The position numbers and the translations under genes are program-made. Shown here one piece after another: positions 2,515 through 34,592 of a DNA stretch of 34,592 nt. Under the pieces are notes generated by a model. That model saw only the letters and a program-made list of their open reading frames with translations. It was not told the origin of the DNA and did not search any database. Numbering within the stretch: the stretch's first letter is position 1; each line of letters begins with the position of its first letter. The DNA is from Rhodocyclaceae bacterium (GTDB lineage: Bacteria; Pseudomonadota; Gammaproteobacteria; Burkholderiales; Rhodocyclaceae). Location of the stretch: assembly GCA_020445665.1 (NCBI GenBank), contig JAGRGD010000137.1, positions 1 to 34,592 on the forward strand. Direction: 5' to 3'.

Positions 2515-3705
2515 ATGGATACTCGGCAAGTCATCGATGAGATTCACGCCGCGCTGACGACGTTTCGGCGCGACATCCACGCCCACCCGGAGCTCGCCTT
2601 CGAGGAGCACCGCACCGCGGAGCGGGTAGCCGCTCGCCTCGAGGCGCTGGGCATCGAGACCCACCGCGGCATCGGCCGCACCGGGGTCGTCGGCGTGATC
2701 CGCAAGGGCAAGGGGTCGCGCTCGATCGGACTCAGGGCCGACATGGACGCGCTGCCGATCACCGAGCGCAACAGCTTCCCCCATCACTCCCGCCACGCGG
2801 GCCGGATGCACGCCTGTGGCCACGATGGGCACACGACGATGCTGCTCGGCGCCGCCGAGGTGCTGGCCCGGCAGGCCGACTTCGACGGCACCGTGCATCT
2901 GATCTTCCAGCCGGCGGAGGAGGGCGACGGCGGGGGGCGCGAGATGATCGAGGACGGCCTCTTCGAGCGCTTCCCGATGGACGCAGTATTCGGCATGCAC
3001 AACTGGCCCGGCCTGCCGGCCGGCCACTTCGCGGTGCACGCCGGCCCGGTGATGGCCTCGGCGGATCATTTCGAGGTCGAGATCCGCGGCCATGGCGCCC
3101 ACGCCGCGATGCCGCACCTGGGCATCGACCCGGTGGCGGCCGGCGCGGCCCTCGTCCAGGCCCTGCAGACCATCGCCAGTCGCACCATCGATCCGGTCGA
3201 TCCGGTGGTGATCTCGGTCACCCAGTTCCACGCCGGCGAGGCCAATAACGTGATCCCGGACCGGGCGCTGCTGGGCGGCACCGTGCGCGCCTTCCGGCCC
3301 GAGGTGCAGGACAAGGTCGAGCAGGCCATGCAGCGCATCTGCGCGGGCATCGGCGCGAGCTTCGGTGCCAACGTGAATTTCCAGTATCACCGGGGCTACC
3401 CGCCGACCATCAACACCGCCGCCGAGGCGGCCAACTGTGCCGAGGTCGCGCGGGCGGTGGCCGGCGCGGCGGCGGTGCGCACCGACATGAAGCCCAGCAT
3501 GGGGGCCGAGGATTTCTCCTTCTTCCTGCTCCAGCGGCCGGGCGCCTACGTCTGGATCGGCAACGGTCCGGGCGAGGGCGGGTGCACCTTGCACAACCCC
3601 CACTACGATTTCAACGACGAGATCATCCCGGCCGGCGTCGCCTACTGGGCGCGGTTGGTCGAGACCCTGATGCCGGCCGGCGTGCCGGGAGCGGCCACGG
3701 CATGA
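2515..3705 (+). CDS. M20 family metallopeptidase / amidohydrolase (hippurate hydrolase-like)
   Basis: A 396-residue protein of the M20D amidohydrolase family, which hydrolyses N-acyl or N-aromatic acyl amino acids in the cytoplasm. Visible metal-site motifs are GLRADMDALPI near residue 80, MHACGHDGHT near residue 100, FQPAEEGDGGG near residue 137 and GMHNWPG near residue 163. The dimerisation/lid domain follows (GHGAHAAMPHLGIDPV) and the C-terminal metal-ligand segment is GAEDFSFFLLQRPGAYVWIGNG. The ATG at 2515 follows AAGGAA at 2508-2513 and gives the usual family N-terminus. A GTG at 2485 in the same frame would add ten residues without family support. The gene overlaps the next one by ATGA, so the two are probably co-expressed. 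The exact acyl-amino-acid substrate cannot be told from sequence. Confidence 0.92.
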   Translation: MDTRQVIDEIHAALTTFRRDIHAHPELAFEEHRTAERVAARLEALGIETHRGIGRTGVVGVIRKGKGSRSIGLRADMDALPITERNSFPHHSRHAGRMHACGHDGHTTMLLGAAEVLARQADFDGTVHLIFQPAEEGDGGGREMIEDGLFERFPMDAVFGMHNWPGLPAGHFAVHAGPVMASADHFEVEIRGHGAHAAMPHLGIDPVAAGAALVQALQTIASRTIDPVDPVVISVTQFHAGEANNVIPDRALLGGTVRAFRPEVQDKVEQAMQRICAGIGASFGANVNFQYHRGYPPTINTAAEAANCAEVARAVAGAAAVRTDMKPSMGAEDFSFFLLQRPGAYVWIGNGPGEGGCTLHNPHYDFNDEIIPAGVAYWARLVETLMPAGVPGAATA

Positions 3706-4040
3706 AGCTCGACGACCCCTTCGGCCGCAGCGCCGACAAGAACGAGCGGGACTACCAGAACCTGCGCGCGGCCCTCGTCGACGCCGGCATCGACAGCCCC
3801 GACCGCATCGCCTCGATGCGGGCCAACGTAGTGCGCAACGCGGTCATCGCCGCGGTGGTGGTGGCCGCGGTGGTCGGGCTGGTGGCGCTGCTCCTGCCCG
3901 ACGCGCTCGGCTTCGTCACGATCTGCGCGGTCGTGATCGGCATCTGGATCGCCGCCAGCACCGTGCGCGGGCGGGCCCACCTGGCCCGCTACCAGCGGGA
4001 ACTGGGCGGCAATGCCCTCAATGAGTGCGGCAATCATTGA
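3702..4040 (+). CDS. Small two-pass membrane protein of unknown function
   Basis: A 112-residue protein that I do not recognise. It has a polar, charged N-terminus (residues 1-44), two hydrophobic segments at about 46-65 and 68-87 separated by a short LPDALG turn, and a basic C-terminal tail (RGRAHLARYQRE). Both ends would lie on the same side of the inner membrane. Its ATG overlaps the stop of the amidohydrolase gene (ATGA at 3702-3705), implying translational coupling, and a product of just this size is sensible for the frame. The coupling suggests a link with the amidohydrolase, but nothing in the sequence gives a function. The gene ends just before the hairpin-rich convergent gap. Confidence 0.75.
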   Translation: MKLDDPFGRSADKNERDYQNLRAALVDAGIDSPDRIASMRANVVRNAVIAAVVVAAVVGLVALLLPDALGFVTICAVVIGIWIAASTVRGRAHLARYQRELGGNALNECGNH

Positions 4041-29773: not shown

Positions 29774-31039
29774 ATGCTCCGCCGCGCGACCTCTGCCTGG
29801 CTGACCGGCCTGCTGCTCGGCTTCTCGGGGGGGCTGTGGGCCGCCGAGCCGACTCCCGGCGCCGATCTCGCCAGCCTGCTGGCCTATGCGCGCGAGCACA
29901 ACCCCGAGCTGCAGGCCCGTGCCGCCGATGTCGGCGCCGAGCGGGCGCGCATCGACGCGGCCACGGCGCTGCCCGACCCGCGGGTGCAGGTGGAGCTGAT
30001 GGATGTCACCAACGAGGTGGCCGGCGGCGGTGCCTCGCTGCTGCCCGGCGACGTGGGGGTGACCCGATACCGGCTGATCCAGCCGCTGCCGTACTTCGGT
30101 AAGCTGGCCCTGCGGGGCGAGCTGGCGGCGCGGCGTGCGGAGCGCGGCGAAGCGCGGCTCGACGTGGCGCGGGTCGACATCGAGGCGGCGATCGCGGCGG
30201 CGTATGTGCGCTACTACCGGGCGGTGTCGCAGGGGCGCATCCAGCGCGAGACCCTGGCCCTGCTCGAGGCCCTCGAGCGGCTCGTGCTGACCCGCTACGG
30301 TGTCGGCCTGGTGCCGCAGCAGGACGCGGTTCGGGTCCAGGCCGAGATCACCGCGGTCAAGATCGACCTGCTCGAGACCGAACGACTCGTCGAGGACGCC
30401 CGGGTCAGCGTCAATGCCGCGCTGCCGCGGTCGCCCGACGCGCCGCTGGCGGTGCCCGAGGCCCTGCCGGCGATGGCGCCGGTCGGTGCCTTCGACGCAT
30501 TGGCGGCCCGCGCCCGCGAGCGGGCGCCGCTGCTGGCGAGCCTGCGCAGCGACATCGCGATGGCCGAGGCCGAGCAGGCCATCGTCACCCGCGAGCGCTA
30601 CCCGGACTTCGCGCTGGGCCTCACCAACAACCGCCCGAAGCAGGGCGACGCGACCTGGGACGTGATGCTCGAGGTCACGATCCCGCTGCAGCAGAGCCGG
30701 CGACGCAGCGACGAGGCCAGCGCCGGCCAGCGGGTGCTGGCGGCCCGCGCCCGCGTCGAAGCCGAGGCCGCGCGCATCGACGGCCAGCTGGGGCGGGCCG
30801 TGGCGGCGTTCCGCTCGGCCCGGGACAAGGCCGAGATGCTGTCGCGCACGCTGTTGCCCCAGTCGCAGGCCAACCTGGAGGCGGCCGAGGCGGGCTACGA
30901 GAGCGGGCGCATCAACTTCAACACCCTGATCGAGGCGGAGCGCCAGATCCTGCGCACGCGGCTGGCACTGCTGGCGGCGCGGACCGACGCCAGGCTCCAG
31001 CAGGTGGAAATCCAACGTTTGACAGGGGCCGAATGGTGA
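29774..31039 (+). CDS. cusC: TolC-family outer-membrane efflux protein, CusC-like
   Basis: A 421-residue outer-membrane channel subunit. A signal peptide lies at residues 1-23 (LTGLLLGFSGGLWAAEP). Two outer-membrane efflux (OEP) repeats follow, with the typical long alpha-helical segments and strands, for example LLAYAREHNPELQARAADVGAERARIDAATALPDPRV and EAAEAGYESGRINFNTLIEAERQILRTR. It forms the exit duct of the tripartite CusCBA pump. It starts 10 nt after the cusF stop and overlaps cusB by seven nt. Confidence 0.9.
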   Translation: MLRRATSAWLTGLLLGFSGGLWAAEPTPGADLASLLAYAREHNPELQARAADVGAERARIDAATALPDPRVQVELMDVTNEVAGGGASLLPGDVGVTRYRLIQPLPYFGKLALRGELAARRAERGEARLDVARVDIEAAIAAAYVRYYRAVSQGRIQRETLALLEALERLVLTRYGVGLVPQQDAVRVQAEITAVKIDLLETERLVEDARVSVNAALPRSPDAPLAVPEALPAMAPVGAFDALAARARERAPLLASLRSDIAMAEAEQAIVTRERYPDFALGLTNNRPKQGDATWDVMLEVTIPLQQSRRRSDEASAGQRVLAARARVEAEAARIDGQLGRAVAAFRSARDKAEMLSRTLLPQSQANLEAAEAGYESGRINFNTLIEAERQILRTRLALLAARTDARLQQVEIQRLTGAEW

Positions 31040-32568
31040 GTCGTGCGACAGGCGTGACGATCGGCGCGATTCTGGTGGCCGCCGCGCTGGCGGGGGGCTA
31101 CTGGCTGGGCGCGCGGGGCAACGGGGCGGCGATGCCGGCCATGGTGGGAGGCGGCGGCGCAGCGCCGACCGAGGCGTCGACGTCCGGCGAAGGCGCGGCC
31201 GAGGCGCCGGCCGGCGAGCGCAAGATCCTCTACTACCGCAATCCGATGGGCCTGCCGGACACCTCGCCGGTGCCCAAGCAGGACTCCATGGGCATGGACT
31301 ACATCCCGGTCTACGAGGGCGAGGGGCCGGACGACTCCGGCGCCGTGGCGGTCAGCCCGGTGCGGATGCAGACCCTCGGCGTCAAGACCGCCCGGGTCGC
31401 CCGCACGGTGCTCGACGCCGCGGTGCGTTCGGTCGGTCGGGTCGAGGTCAACGAGCGGCGCATCCACGACGTGGCGCCGCGCTTCGAAGGCTGGATCGAG
31501 CGCCTCCATGTGGACGCCACCGGCGACCCGGTGCGCCGGGGCCAGGCCCTGTTCTCCGTCTATAGCCCGGAGCTGGTGTCGGCGCGCAAGGAACTGGCCA
31601 TCGCCAGCGCGCTGGCCGACGCCGCAGCGGAGGGTGACCCGGCCGCCCGCGACGGCGCCCGGCGCCTGGCCGAGGCGGCCCGCGAGCGCCTGCGGAACTG
31701 GGACGTGCCCGGCGCCACCCGCAGCAAGGACGAGCGCATCACCTTCACCGCGCCGGCCTCCGGCATCGTCCTCGACAAGAAGGCCGTCGCCGGCATGCGC
31801 TTCATGCCCGGCGAGGCCATCTACCGGATCGCCGACCTCTCCTCGGTGTGGATCATCGCCGATGTGTATGAACAGGACCTGGCCCGCATCGCAGTCGGCC
31901 AGGCGGCCGAGGTGACCATCGACGCCTTCCCGGACCGCCGCTTCGAGGCACGCGTCACCTACCTCTACCCAACCCTCAACGCGCCGACCCGCACCACCCC
32001 GGTCCGCCTCGAGCTGGCCAACCCGGAGGGCCTGCTGCGCCCCGGCATGTTCGCCCACGTGGACATCGCCGCCGCCGGCGCCGAGCCGCGCCTCGCGGTG
32101 CCCGAGTCGGCGGTGATCGACAGCGGCGAGCGCCAGGTGGTGCTGCTCGCCCAGGGCGAGGGCCGCTTCAAGCCGGTCGAGGTCCGCCTCGGGGTGCGCG
32201 GCTCGGACAACATCGAGGTCCTCGAGGGCCTGGCCGAGAACGACGAGGTGGTCGTCTCCGCCAACTTCCTGATCGACGCCGAGAGCAACCTCCAGGCCGC
32301 CCTGGCCGGCTTCAGCGAGGCCGAGGCGAGCGTGCCGGTCTATGAAGCCACCGGCTCGCTGGAGGACATCTTCGACGACGGTACGGTGATGATGAATCAC
32401 GACCCGATTCCGGCGCTCCAGTGGCCGGCCATGACGATGGAGTTCGGCCTCGAGTCGAAGTCCGTGCTCGAGGGCGTGACGCCCGGCGAGCCGCTGACCT
32501 TCCGCTTCGAGGACCGGGGCAACGGGGCGTTCGTCGTCACCGAGGTCGAGAAGCGGGGTGGGCAGTGA
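31033..32568 (+). CDS. cusB: RND periplasmic adaptor CusB with N-terminal metal-binding and C-terminal CusF-like domains
   Basis: A 511-residue membrane-fusion protein. An N-terminal anchor/signal lies at about residues 8-27. A heavy-metal-binding domain spans about 64-95 (ILYYRNPMGLPDTSPVPKQDSMGMDYIPVYE). The lipoyl/hairpin/beta-barrel core is at about 105-420 (APRFEGWIERLHVDATGDPVRRGQ, FTAPASGIVLDKKAVAGMRFMPGEAIYRIADLSSVWI). A fused CusF-like domain ends the protein, with an intact Cu(I) site: H456, W464, M467 and M469. This fused domain keeps the Trp that the separate CusF has lost. The protein links CusA to CusC and hands metal to CusA. The cusA gene does not follow directly: repeats and a DUF559 gene intervene. 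Confidence 0.93.
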   Translation: MVSRATGVTIGAILVAAALAGGYWLGARGNGAAMPAMVGGGGAAPTEASTSGEGAAEAPAGERKILYYRNPMGLPDTSPVPKQDSMGMDYIPVYEGEGPDDSGAVAVSPVRMQTLGVKTARVARTVLDAAVRSVGRVEVNERRIHDVAPRFEGWIERLHVDATGDPVRRGQALFSVYSPELVSARKELAIASALADAAAEGDPAARDGARRLAEAARERLRNWDVPGATRSKDERITFTAPASGIVLDKKAVAGMRFMPGEAIYRIADLSSVWIIADVYEQDLARIAVGQAAEVTIDAFPDRRFEARVTYLYPTLNAPTRTTPVRLELANPEGLLRPGMFAHVDIAAAGAEPRLAVPESAVIDSGERQVVLLAQGEGRFKPVEVRLGVRGSDNIEVLEGLAENDEVVVSANFLIDAESNLQAALAGFSEAEASVPVYEATGSLEDIFDDGTVMMNHDPIPALQWPAMTMEFGLESKSVLEGVTPGEPLTFRFEDRGNGAFVVTEVEKRGGQ

Positions 32569-32588
32569 TCGTTCGCCCTGTCGGCTGG

Positions 32589-32632
32589 CTCAACCGCATC
32601 CCCCTCCCATCCTCCCCCTTGAAGGGGGAGGG
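32589..32632 (+). repeat. 44-nt dispersed repeat unit, copy B
   Basis: CTCAACCGCATCCCCCTCC (32589-32607), 10 nt, CTTGAAGGGGGAGGG (32618-32632). It has the same layout as the 4199-4242 copy. It contains a perfect 10-bp stem: CCTCCCCCTT (32611-32620), one base, AAGGGGGAGG (32622-32631). It lies 20 nt after the cusB stop. Confidence 0.8.
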
Positions 32633-32750
32633 GGTGGGCATTTGGGCGCTGAGGCTGACGTCCGACGGTGTCGCGCGGCCCCTCGGGCTGCGCTCGCACG
32701 CTTGCCTGCTGGGTGGCCGGCGCAGCGCAACCAAGGCCCGCGCCGTCATC
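32633..32750. other. Spacer between inverted repeat copies, no gene seen
   Basis: The 118 nt between copies B and C, and the 85 nt from copy C to 32879, hold no convincing reading frame with a start and ribosome-binding site. The open frames crossing it run through the repeat palindromes in low-complexity Pro/Gly/Arg sequence. The non-coding stretch after cusB (32569-32879, 311 nt) is thus occupied by the repeat pair and spacer. Confidence 0.5.
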
Positions 32751-32794
32751 CCCTCCCCCTTCAAGGGGGAGGTCGGGAGGGGGATGGGGTTAGC
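32751..32794 (-). repeat. 44-nt dispersed repeat unit, copy C (inverted)
   Basis: Read on the minus strand: AACCCCATCCCCCTCC (32791-32776), 10 nt, CTTGAAGGGGGAGGG (32765-32751), with the same internal spacing as copies A and B. It forms an inverted pair with copy B across a spacer of about 118 nt. Its stem CCTCCCCCTT / AAGGGGGAGG (32752-32772) is perfect. It lies 85 nt upstream of the DUF559 ATG at 32880. Confidence 0.8.
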
Positions 32795-32879
32795 CGAGAG
32801 AAGCGTAAAGGTTGATGCGAATGGCATGAATGTCCCCGCCCGCGTTATCCTGCCCACCCGCTCCACGCCCCCCGACCCG

Positions 32880-33245
32880 ATGAAGGGACAAGCCAACCCG
32901 GCCCTGCGCCGTCACAAGCCCCAGCGCGCGCTGCGGCGGCGGTCCACGGACGCGGAGCGCCTCCTCTGGCGCCACCTGCGCGGTCGTCAGCTCGGTGGCA
33001 TGCGCTTCCGCCGCCAGCACCCGTTTCTCGACTACGTGCTCGACTTCGTCTGCCTCGAGGCCCGGCTGGTGGTCGAGCTGGACGGTGGGCAGCACCTCGA
33101 TTCGACCGAAGACGCCGCCCGCGATGCCCGCCTGCGCGCCGCAGGATTCGACGTGCTGCGTTTCTGGAACCACGAGGTGCTGGGCGAGACCGAGGCGGTG
33201 CTGACGCGCCTACACCTCGCCCTGGCAGAACGGAGCGATCGCTGA
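32880..33245 (+). CDS. DUF559 domain protein (Vsr/PD-(D/E)XK endonuclease-like)
   Basis: A 121-residue basic protein made almost wholly of a DUF559 domain. Typical motifs are [19 protein letters not shown] (about residues 22-40), [30 protein letters not shown] (43-72), and [21 protein letters not shown] (88-108). The likely metal/catalytic residues are E26, D55, E66 and D68, followed by QH at 71-72, matching the Vsr-like PD-(D/E)XK nuclease plan. Biological role is not established for the family. The start at 32880 gives the usual N-terminus but lacks a ribosome-binding site; ATG 32826, in frame, has AAAGG upstream. Its TGA overlaps the cusA ATG (TGATG). Nothing about it suggests copper; it looks like a passenger. 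Confidence 0.85.
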
Positions 33246-34592
33246 TGCTCGCGCGACTGATCGACTGGTCCGCCCGTAACGTCTTCCTGGTGCTGCTCGC
33301 CACGGCGGCCATCGTCGGCGCCGGCGTGTGGGCGGTGAAGCACACCCCGCTCGACGCGCTGCCGGATCTCTCCGACGTGCAGGTGATCGTGTTCACCCAG
33401 TATCCGGGGCAGGCGCCGCGGGTGGTGGAGGACCAGGTCACCTATCCGCTCACCACGGCGATGCTGGCGGTGCCCAACGCCAAGGTGGTGCGCGGCTTCT
33501 CGATGTTCGGCGCGTCCTACGTGTATGTGATCTTCGAGGACGGCACCGACATCTACTGGGCGCGCTCGCGGGTGCTGGAGTACCTGTCCACGGCGGCGGG
33601 GCGGCTGCCGGTGGGGGTGTCACCGCAGATCGGGCCCGACGCCACCGGTGTGGGCTGGGTGTACCAGTACGCCCTGAAGGGGGAGCAGCAGTCCCTGGCC
33701 GACCTGCGCAGCCTGCAGGACTGGTACGTCCGCTACCAGCTGACCCAGGCCGAAGGGGTGGCCGAGGTGGCCAGCGTGGGGGGCTTCGTCAAGGAATATC
33801 AGGTCACCGTGGATCCCCACCGACTGGCCAGCTACGGCATTCCGCTGGATCGGGTCAGCCGGGTCATCCGCGAGTCGAACCGGGACGTGGGCGGGCGGGT
33901 GATCGAGCTGGCCGAGAAGGAGTACATGGTCCGCGGCCTCGGCTACCTGGGCGGGCCGGCCGACATCGAGCAGCTGGTGCTGAAGAGCGAGGGCGGCACG
34001 CCGGTGCTGGTGCGTGACGTGGCGCGGGTGGAAATGGTGCCGGCGACCCGCCGGGGCGTGGCCGAGCTGGACGGCGAAGGGGAGGTGGCCTCGGGCATCC
34101 TCATGGCCCGCTTCGGCCAGAACGCCCTCGACGTGATCGCCCGCGTCAAGGACAAGATCCGGGAGATCCTCCCCGGCCTGCCGGCCGGCACCGAGATCGT
34201 GCCGGTGTACGACCGCTCCACGCTCATCGAGCGCGCCATCGACAACCTGCAGTGGACGCTGTTCGAGGAGAGCCTGATCGTCGCCGTGGTGTGCATTGTC
34301 TTCCTCATGCACGTGCGCAGCGCGCTGGTCGCGATCGTCACCCTGCCCATCGGCATCCTGATCGCCTTCATCGCGATGCGCGCGATGGACATGGGCAGCA
34401 ACATCATGAGCCTGGGCGGGATTGCGATCGCCATCGGCGCGATGGTGGACGCCGCCATCGTGATGATCGAGAACGCCCACAAGCGCCTCGAGCACCTGCC
34501 CCCCGACGCCGACGCGCGGACCCGGGGCAAGACGATGATCCGCGCCTGCCAGGAGGTCGGCCCGGCGCTGTTCTTCTCGCTGCTGATCATCA
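33245..34592 (+). CDS. cusA: Heavy-metal efflux RND pump CusA (partial, C-terminus beyond window)
   Basis: Open from the ATG at 33245 to the window end (449 codons of a family near 1040-1060). The N-terminus ([31 protein letters not shown]), [33 protein letters not shown] and GWVYQYAL are characteristic of heavy-metal-exporting RND proteins. The first periplasmic domain is followed by helices at about 335-425 and the proton-relay motif [20 protein letters not shown], typical of the HME-RND monovalent Cu/Ag type. It exports Cu(I)/Ag(I) using the proton gradient, with CusB and CusC. It is translationally coupled to the DUF559 gene rather than to cusB. Confidence 0.94.

What the first reader, a model, noticed from the sequence alone, without database searches (positions are those of the whole stretch)
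32566..33247. A repeat pair plus DUF559 gene appears inserted exactly at the cusB-cusA stop/start overlap
cusB and cusA are normally adjacent. Here 677 bp separate them, flanked by TGAT on both sides. Removing it restores TGATG, the same overlap seen at cusR/cusS and livH/livM. The insert leaves a new TGATG linking DUF559 to cusA, so coupling to cusA was kept. This looks like a precise insertion of a mobile or domesticated unit with a possible 4-nt target duplication. No transposase is present, so the mechanism would be new or act in trans. The DUF559 nuclease itself is a candidate mobiliser.
Basis: partly seen in the sequence, partly recalled or inferred. Interest (0 to 1): 0.72.

Follow-up and report, generated by a model that had tools for sequence, protein, structure and literature searches.

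The report
Repeat-bracketed nuclease gene inside copper operon
A small DNA-cutting enzyme gene, framed by short C-rich repeats, sits between two copper-pump genes, and the same gene-plus-repeat pairing recurs in many bacteria, which suggests the missing partner enzyme for a repeat family known from E. coli since the 1990s.

Summary
676 bp separate cusB and cusA; 3 of 3 congeners with a readable junction show the empty TGATG overlap. The insert holds two perfect "box C"/intrastrand-triplex motifs (TMs: pyrimidine/purine hairpin plus mirror-image purine tail) and a DUF559 (YcjD-like, Vsr-related) nuclease gene.

The larger finding, not met in my literature searches, is that DUF559 genes are usually bracketed by inverted TMs. 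Of 80 genome-contig loci, 71 have a TM within 300 bp, 48 on both sides, 42 with tails inward; for 189 control genes in those loci: 7, 0, 0. In 370 genomes, TMs accompany DUF559 (57/76 versus 41/254). Within the window's genus (6 genomes) only this genome has DUF559 and the TM family (31 places).

Likeliest: a REPtron-like unit whose nuclease disperses or processes TMs; the window copy lacks the downstream TM. Nuclease action on TMs is inferred, not shown. A 4-nt target duplication is not supported. In one genome the unit lies inside a terminal-inverted-repeat element with 9-bp duplications, so movement by another enzyme remains a rival.

The parts
31033..32568 (+). cusB (membrane-fusion protein with C-terminal CusF domain), upstream neighbour; stop TGA 32566-32568
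32566..32569 (+). TGAT at the left edge of the insert (stop codon plus T); not accepted as a target duplication
   Evidence: inference
32598..32631 (-). TM / box C-like triplex motif, tail toward cusB; reads CCTCCCCCTT-C-AAGGGGGAGG-ATG-GGAGGGGGAT on the - strand (10-nt arms, no mismatch)
32637..32746 (.). 110-nt spacer between the two repeat arms of the doublet
32752..32785 (+). TM / box C-like triplex motif, tail toward the DUF559 gene: CCTCCCCCTT-C-AAGGGGGAGG-TCG-GGAGGGGGAT (10-nt arms, no mismatch)
32826..33245 (+). DUF559 nuclease gene, 139 aa (start inferred); holds the columns invariant in alignment A2 (D73, F74, E84, D86, G87, H90, D96, R99, R112, W114 among them)
33243..33247 (+). TGATG overlap of DUF559 stop and cusA start; no downstream TM here, unlike most relatives
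33245..34591 (+). cusA N-terminal part (ACR_tran), downstream neighbour, runs off the window

Best explanation
The insert is one copy of a widespread unit in which a small PD-(D/E)XK (Vsr-related, YcjD-like) nuclease gene is framed by inverted TM elements (box C / intrastrand triplex motifs) whose tails point at the gene. Proposed mechanism: single-stranded DNA at a TM folds into a hairpin whose purine arm is read by the mirror tail; the DUF559 nuclease recognises that structure and cuts beside it, so that TM doublets, and now and then the whole TM-gene-TM unit, are copied or pasted into new intergenic sites. It is a REPtron-like logic with a non-homologous enzyme and a non-homologous repeat. 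In this lineage the unit entered the cusB-cusA junction after the split from its congeners, TMs spread to about 30 sites, and the downstream TM was lost, leaving DUF559 joined to cusA by TGATG. Shown: anatomy, empty sites, bracketing, co-occurrence, arm-tail and protein-TM covariation. Inferred: that the nuclease acts on TMs, that it drives dispersal, and the order of events.
For: Bracketing: 71 of 80 genome-contig loci have a TM within 300 bp, 48 both sides, 42 tails inward; nearest upstream TM is + in 52 of 62, nearest downstream - in 49 of 57 (binomial p 6e-8 and 3e-8). With long-loop TMs the totals are 75 and 45 of 80. Control genes of the same loci: 7, 0, 0 of 189. In the 30 best Pfam-ranked loci, chosen without regard to TMs: 24 either side, 19 both, 17 inward (260-bp limit, recounted from the rows). 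Genome level: TM>=2 in 57/76 genomes with DUF559 E<1e-20 against 41/254 without, OR 15.6. Control family Y1_Tnp: 87/255 against 21/115, OR 2.3. Genus: 0 of 5 congeners has DUF559; TM pattern 31 places here against 0, 0, 0, 1, 1. G174: only two pattern matches in the genome, both bracketing its DUF559 gene. Protein identity and adjacent-TM similarity correlate, Mantel r 0.26, none of 2000 permutations as high. Tail follows arm more than when arms are swapped: 0.41 against at most 0.25. Units lie at unrelated sites: 38 of 3160 locus pairs share a neighbour ORF. Empty sites.
Against: No cleavage or movement by DUF559 is shown. 41 of 254 genomes without DUF559 have >=2 TMs, and 29 have >=5, up to 95. 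14 of 76 genomes with strong DUF559 have no pattern match, and 9 of 80 loci have no TM by the strict rule, 5 also by the relaxed rule. In G090 the unit is inside a 9-bp-duplicating inverted-repeat element, which suggests a different mover. E. coli ycjD has TMs on one side only in the copies read, and most E. coli box C differences are block swaps with REP sequence, not clean insertions. The TM pattern was designed on DUF559-flanking repeats, query alignment A1 was picked partly from bracketed loci, and the tests are not corrected for phylogeny.
Confidence: 0.55

Rival explanations
1. Passenger model. The TM-DUF559 unit is cargo moved by a DDE-type transposase in trans or by host recombination; DUF559 does something else, and the TMs are landing pads or hitchhikers.
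For: In G090 three 98%-identical units lie inside inverted repeats CAAAGGTATCTACACAA... with 9-bp duplications (two exact, one with a mismatch). The same end occurs at 10 other places with 2-3 mismatches, some of them at contig ends, one as a short element of about 118 bp.
Against: Such ends were seen only in G090; I found none at the window unit, and no inverted repeat beyond the TMs was noticed in the loci inspected. No transposase was identified in G090 (ORFs listed only for L231 and L237, not searched against families). It does not explain why tails point at the gene in 42 of 80 loci or why TMs and DUF559 co-occur.
Confidence: 0.2
2. Repair model. DUF559 is a Vsr-like repair nuclease that resolves TM structures or mismatches; TMs arise by other means, and the gene is kept next to what it services.
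For: DUF559 is related to Vsr (weak TIGR00632 match, 23 bits; YcjD-Vsr profile match in PMC1189080, passages). The Caulobacter DUF559 protein VsrA is proposed as a mismatch-repair endonuclease (PMC12907096, passages). TMs are linked to genome instability in E. coli (PMC4666352).
Against: A repair enzyme need not be bracketed by inverted copies of its substrate at unrelated sites. The Caulobacter locus in my set (L170) has no TM, so that functional case may not carry over.
Confidence: 0.2
3. The gene is ancestral at cusB-cusA and was lost in the congeners.
For: Direction is not formally polarised; only three congener junctions could be read.
Against: No congener has DUF559 anywhere and none has the TM family; all three readable junctions keep the tight TGATG overlap.
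Confidence: 0.04
4. The TMs only act as terminators or RNA structures for DUF559 and its neighbours, with no role in movement.
For: They are stable hairpins lying between genes.
Against: The tail follows the arm, TMs are dispersed through the genome, and 0 of 189 control genes are bracketed.
Confidence: 0.05

Closest known systems
Box C / PIT / TM intrastrand triplex repeats of E. coli (Holder et al. 2015, PMC4666352; abstract, sections 15, 18, 19 and passages seen)
   Same: Same anatomy: pyrimidine arm, purine arm, mirror purine tail; intergenic, dispersed, often as inverted pairs of two types.
   Different: That paper ties TMs to no gene and says activities giving mobility were never found near them; its main text has 0 hits for 'nuclease' and 'DUF'. 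Here they frame a nuclease gene.
REPtrons: RAYT (Y1/HUH transposase) with GTAG REPs / REPINs (PMC3733652, abstract, sections 6, 7, 11 and passages; PMC3116915, search listing)
   Same: One nuclease gene framed by inverted copies of a dispersed palindrome; doublets as likely non-autonomous units.
   Different: Enzyme is PD-(D/E)XK-type DUF559, not HUH; repeat lacks GTAG and has a triplex tail.
CGTC REPs (PMC3733652)
   Same: Palindrome family reported without a dedicated transposase.
   Different: Tagged by CGTC, 8-9 bp stems starting AT, short CCA-like tails; the repeats here are not of that form.
YcjD/DUF559 and Vsr nucleases (E. coli YcjD, Caulobacter VsrA, N. gonorrhoeae structure 3hrl)
   Same: Same protein family: 3hrl E 1.2e-26, NF007294 100 bits.
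   Different: No repeat partner was mentioned in the passages seen; Vsr is a T:G mismatch endonuclease.
G090 inverted-repeat element with 9-bp duplication
   Same: Carries a TM-DUF559-TM unit.
   Different: Extra terminal repeats and duplications not seen at the window.

Membership tests
DUF559 (PF04480) | Pfam score above the curated cut-off | tested here: met
   128.2 against 20.6 bits
YcjD equivalog (NF007294) and Vsr (TIGR00632) | score above the curated cut-off | tested here: not met
   100.3 against 218 bits, and 23.3 against 97.85 bits
Box C / TM triplex repeats | hairpin with pyrimidine and purine arms plus purine tail mirroring the purine arm (A or T facing A) | tested here: met
   both window TMs have 10-nt arms and no mismatch; arm-to-tail letters G-G 970 of 989, A-A or A-T 280 of 291 in the hairpin set (the rule counts T as a match, which favours it)
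Box C / TM triplex repeats | dispersed intergenic multicopy | tested here: met
   31 places in the genome; that all lie between genes was not tested
Box C / TM triplex repeats | forms a triplex in solution | not testable with these tools
   shown for the E. coli motif in PMC4666352, not here
RAYT/REPtron | Y1/HUH transposase in the unit | tested here: not met
   only DUF559 and a sub-threshold related REase model match the gene; the genome has 2 Y1_Tnp matches, places not examined
RAYT/REPtron | GTAG tag on the palindrome | tested here: not met
   window TM sequences
RAYT/REPtron | gene bracketed by inverted dispersed palindromes | tested here: inconclusive
   met for the family in 42 of 80 loci; the window has TMs upstream only
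IS or MITE with terminal inverted repeats and target duplication | terminal inverted repeats and target-site duplication at the window unit | tested here: not met
   no TM or other repeat pair flanks the whole insert; TGAT is explained by the stop codons

The most novel reading that the evidence does not exclude
A transposase-free class of mobile DNA: a Vsr-fold PD-(D/E)XK nuclease that reads a DNA hairpin or triplex and disperses its own flanking triplex repeats, present in many proteobacteria and in other phyla, with E. coli YcjD as the model member and cognate enzyme of box C.
Probability: 0.42. Interest if true: 0.93.

Novelty: new variant of a known kind. Interest (0 to 1): 0.78.

Why it matters
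Box C/TM repeats have been known since the 1990s and are linked to genome instability, but the paper that catalogued them names no mechanism and found no mobility function nearby. A consistent nuclease partner with a member in E. coli K-12 turns that question into ordinary bench tests. If DUF559 does move TMs, bacteria have a second, non-homologous solution to the REP/RAYT problem, with a structure-reading nuclease in place of a transposase. It would also give a role to a very common domain of unknown function, and explain how a nuclease gene can drop into an operon junction while keeping the downstream gene coupled.

Tried and rejected
TGAT as a 4-nt target duplication: rejected, see the interpretation field. 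Rfam: one sub-threshold match to an unrelated lncRNA (E 0.19), so no family. PADLOC: no match, so no sign of a known defence system. Structure prediction: not obtained; the nearest solved relative came from sequence. Azospirillum plasmids for empty sites: the 7 records covering at least 80% of the query all span the unit, so no empty allele. E. coli within-species test of box C count against ycjD: attempted, but the chromosomes were not searchable by handle, so no result. Relatives for exact ends of dispersed TMs in the window's genome: intergenic DNA did not align well enough. Vertical inheritance of the units: the neighbour test argues against it for most pairs; 13 of 156 pairs with DUF559 identity of 60% or more do share neighbours.

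Full report
What is there. In the window cusB stops at 32568 and cusA starts at 33245; 676 bp lie between. They hold two repeat arms, 32592-32636 and 32747-32791, and a 139-aa DUF559 ORF. The ORF ends in a TGATG overlap with cusA, and a GGAG at 33232-33235 is a plausible ribosome site for cusA (sequence; inference). The congeners G001, G002 and G005 have cusB and cusA overlapping as TGATG with nothing between them; G003 and G004 were not readable at this junction.

What the repeat is. Each arm pair carries a three-part motif: a pyrimidine arm, a purine arm, then a purine tail that mirrors the purine arm with A or T facing A. Both window copies are perfect over 10 nt. This is the anatomy of the E. 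coli box C / PIT / TM element described as an intrastrand triplex motif (PMC4666352: abstract, sections 15, 18, 19 and passages). Around DUF559 genes the tail follows its own arm: 0.41 of hairpin readings have a matching tail, against at most 0.25 when arms are swapped among loci (each hairpin is read on both strands, so about 0.8 of hairpins have a tail on one side). The window's genome has 31 such places in two sequence types, many as inverted doublets mixing the types. Some doublets share their spacer as well: 85-86% identity over about 100 bp, so doublets seem to spread as units.

Association with DUF559. DUF559 was found in 19 of 61 relatives and in 0 of 5 congeners. In 53 DUF559 loci from two searches 40 have a TM near, 33 on both sides and 30 with tails inward. 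For the 30 of these that were ranked by Pfam score alone the counts are 24, 19 and 17. In 80 loci from genome contigs, whose record titles name Proteobacteria and also Nitrospirae, Chloroflexi, Dadabacteria, Aminicenantes and others, the counts are 71, 48 and 42. A form with a second hairpin in the loop before the tail brackets the Bradyrhizobium and Mesorhizobium genes and lifts the totals to 75 near and 45 inward. Of 189 other genes in the same loci, 7 have a TM on either side, 0 on both, 0 inward. At genome level TM>=2 occurs in 57 of 76 genomes with strong DUF559, 10 of 40 with weak matches and 41 of 254 without. Y1_Tnp, the RAYT superfamily, shows only OR 2.3. Within the window's genus, only the genome with DUF559 has the TM family: congeners gave 0, 0, 0, 1 and 1 pattern matches, the two singles unlike the family sequence. 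None of these tests is corrected for phylogeny. Against the association, 29 genomes without DUF559 have five or more TMs and 14 of 76 strong-DUF559 genomes have no pattern match.

E. coli. The E. coli member is ycjD, between sapF and fabI, with box C copies downstream. The sapF-ycjD-fabI query is covered to at least 80% in 3363 of 5426 genomes; another study reports the eefRABCD operon in place of ycjD in other phylogroups (PMC12817139, passages). Strain KE47 has 14 strict-pattern box C places. At soxR it carries a 178-bp box C insertion, flanked by a 24-bp direct repeat, that MG1655 lacks; in a spread list of 40 rows, 2 cover the whole query and 37 cover 82%. At gldA-yijF, argE-ppc, gabP-gabT and yraQ-dolP the other strains read have different sequence, REP-like by my reading, where KE47 has box C: block swaps, not clean insertions. 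Box C presence is thus variable, but E. coli does not show clean transposition.

Movement of whole units. Genome G090 has three units with 98%-identical proteins at three sites. They share ends CAAAGGTATCTACACAAGTTG... outside the TMs, and 9-bp direct repeats flank each: exact in two, one mismatch in the third. The same ends occur elsewhere in G090 without DUF559. Units of this kind can therefore be carried by an inverted-repeat element, probably moved in trans; no transposase was identified. In Sinorhizobium the unit sits between two genes that in Shinella are 10 bp apart with no TM; the direction there is not polarised. Across the 80 loci only 38 of 3160 pairs share a neighbour ORF. DUF559 protein identity correlates with adjacent-TM similarity (Mantel r 0.26, 2000 permutations), as expected if enzyme and repeat are cognate or travel together.

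The protein. The window DUF559 matches the solved N. gonorrhoeae endonuclease-like protein 3hrl at E 1.2e-26 and weakly matches Vsr. Sixteen alignment columns are invariant in 42 sequences, including acidic residues that fit a PD-(D/E)XK-type site; which residues are catalytic is recalled family knowledge, not tested. PMC1189080 places YcjD in that superfamily and reports a YcjD-Vsr profile match (passages). Caulobacter VsrA, a DUF559 protein, is needed for an SOS response in cells lacking a cytosine methyltransferase (PMC12907096, passages); the Caulobacter locus in my set has no TM.

How it likely works. The best reading is a REPtron-like pair: the nuclease reads TM structure and its cutting spreads TMs and sometimes itself. 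The arrangement usual in relatives is TM(+) gene TM(-), often with a second TM outside on each side. The window has the left doublet TM(-) TM(+) and the gene but no right TM, so the copy looks trimmed at the cusA side; whether it is still active is unknown. Steps shown are anatomy, empty sites, bracketing and covariation. Steps inferred are recognition, cutting, dispersal and the loss of the right TM.

Literature. Searches for DUF559 with repeats, REP with endonuclease and DUF559, ycjD, triplex with nuclease, DUF559 alone (14 papers listed), and box C with ycjD or DUF559 returned no paper stating this link in the titles, abstracts or passages seen. The library holds open-licence papers only, so a report elsewhere is possible. 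PMC3733652 (abstract, sections 6, 7, 11 and passages) describes a different palindrome class (CGTC) as lacking a dedicated transposase. PMC12308824 (passages) notes three repeated Legionella segments with a transposase and a DUF559 gene as recombination hotspots.

Noticed in passing
L292 about 2551-3900 (S. meliloti Ak57): An ISRm16 (IS4 family) copy lies inside a TM hairpin, and in other S. meliloti records the match extends about 15-20 nt past the element on each side, as if this IS targets TMs.
   Followed up: partly
L103 5881-6065; copies in L274-L288: A second dispersed repeat of about 190 bp in the window's genome abuts TMs and often occurs without a full TM.
   Followed up: partly
L202-L204 and L224-L239 (G090): An inverted-repeat element family ending CAAAGGTATCTACACAA with 9-bp duplications, several at GTTTGTAAC-like targets; three copies carry the DUF559 unit.
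   Followed up: partly
L161, L175, L187, L188: Alphaproteobacterial TMs with a 20-29 nt loop, itself a hairpin in several, between purine arm and tail.
   Followed up: partly
L091 2001-2070 (E. coli ycjD 5-prime region): A roughly 20-bp inverted repeat (CACCTCATTCTGACAAGA...TCTTGTCAGAATGAGGTG) just before ycjD, possibly regulatory.
   Followed up: no
L116 and L118 (Luteimonas): The unit lies at the same junction in two Luteimonas species, directly before a gene that looks like a biotin-dependent carboxylase subunit (my reading), again between adjacent genes.
   Followed up: no
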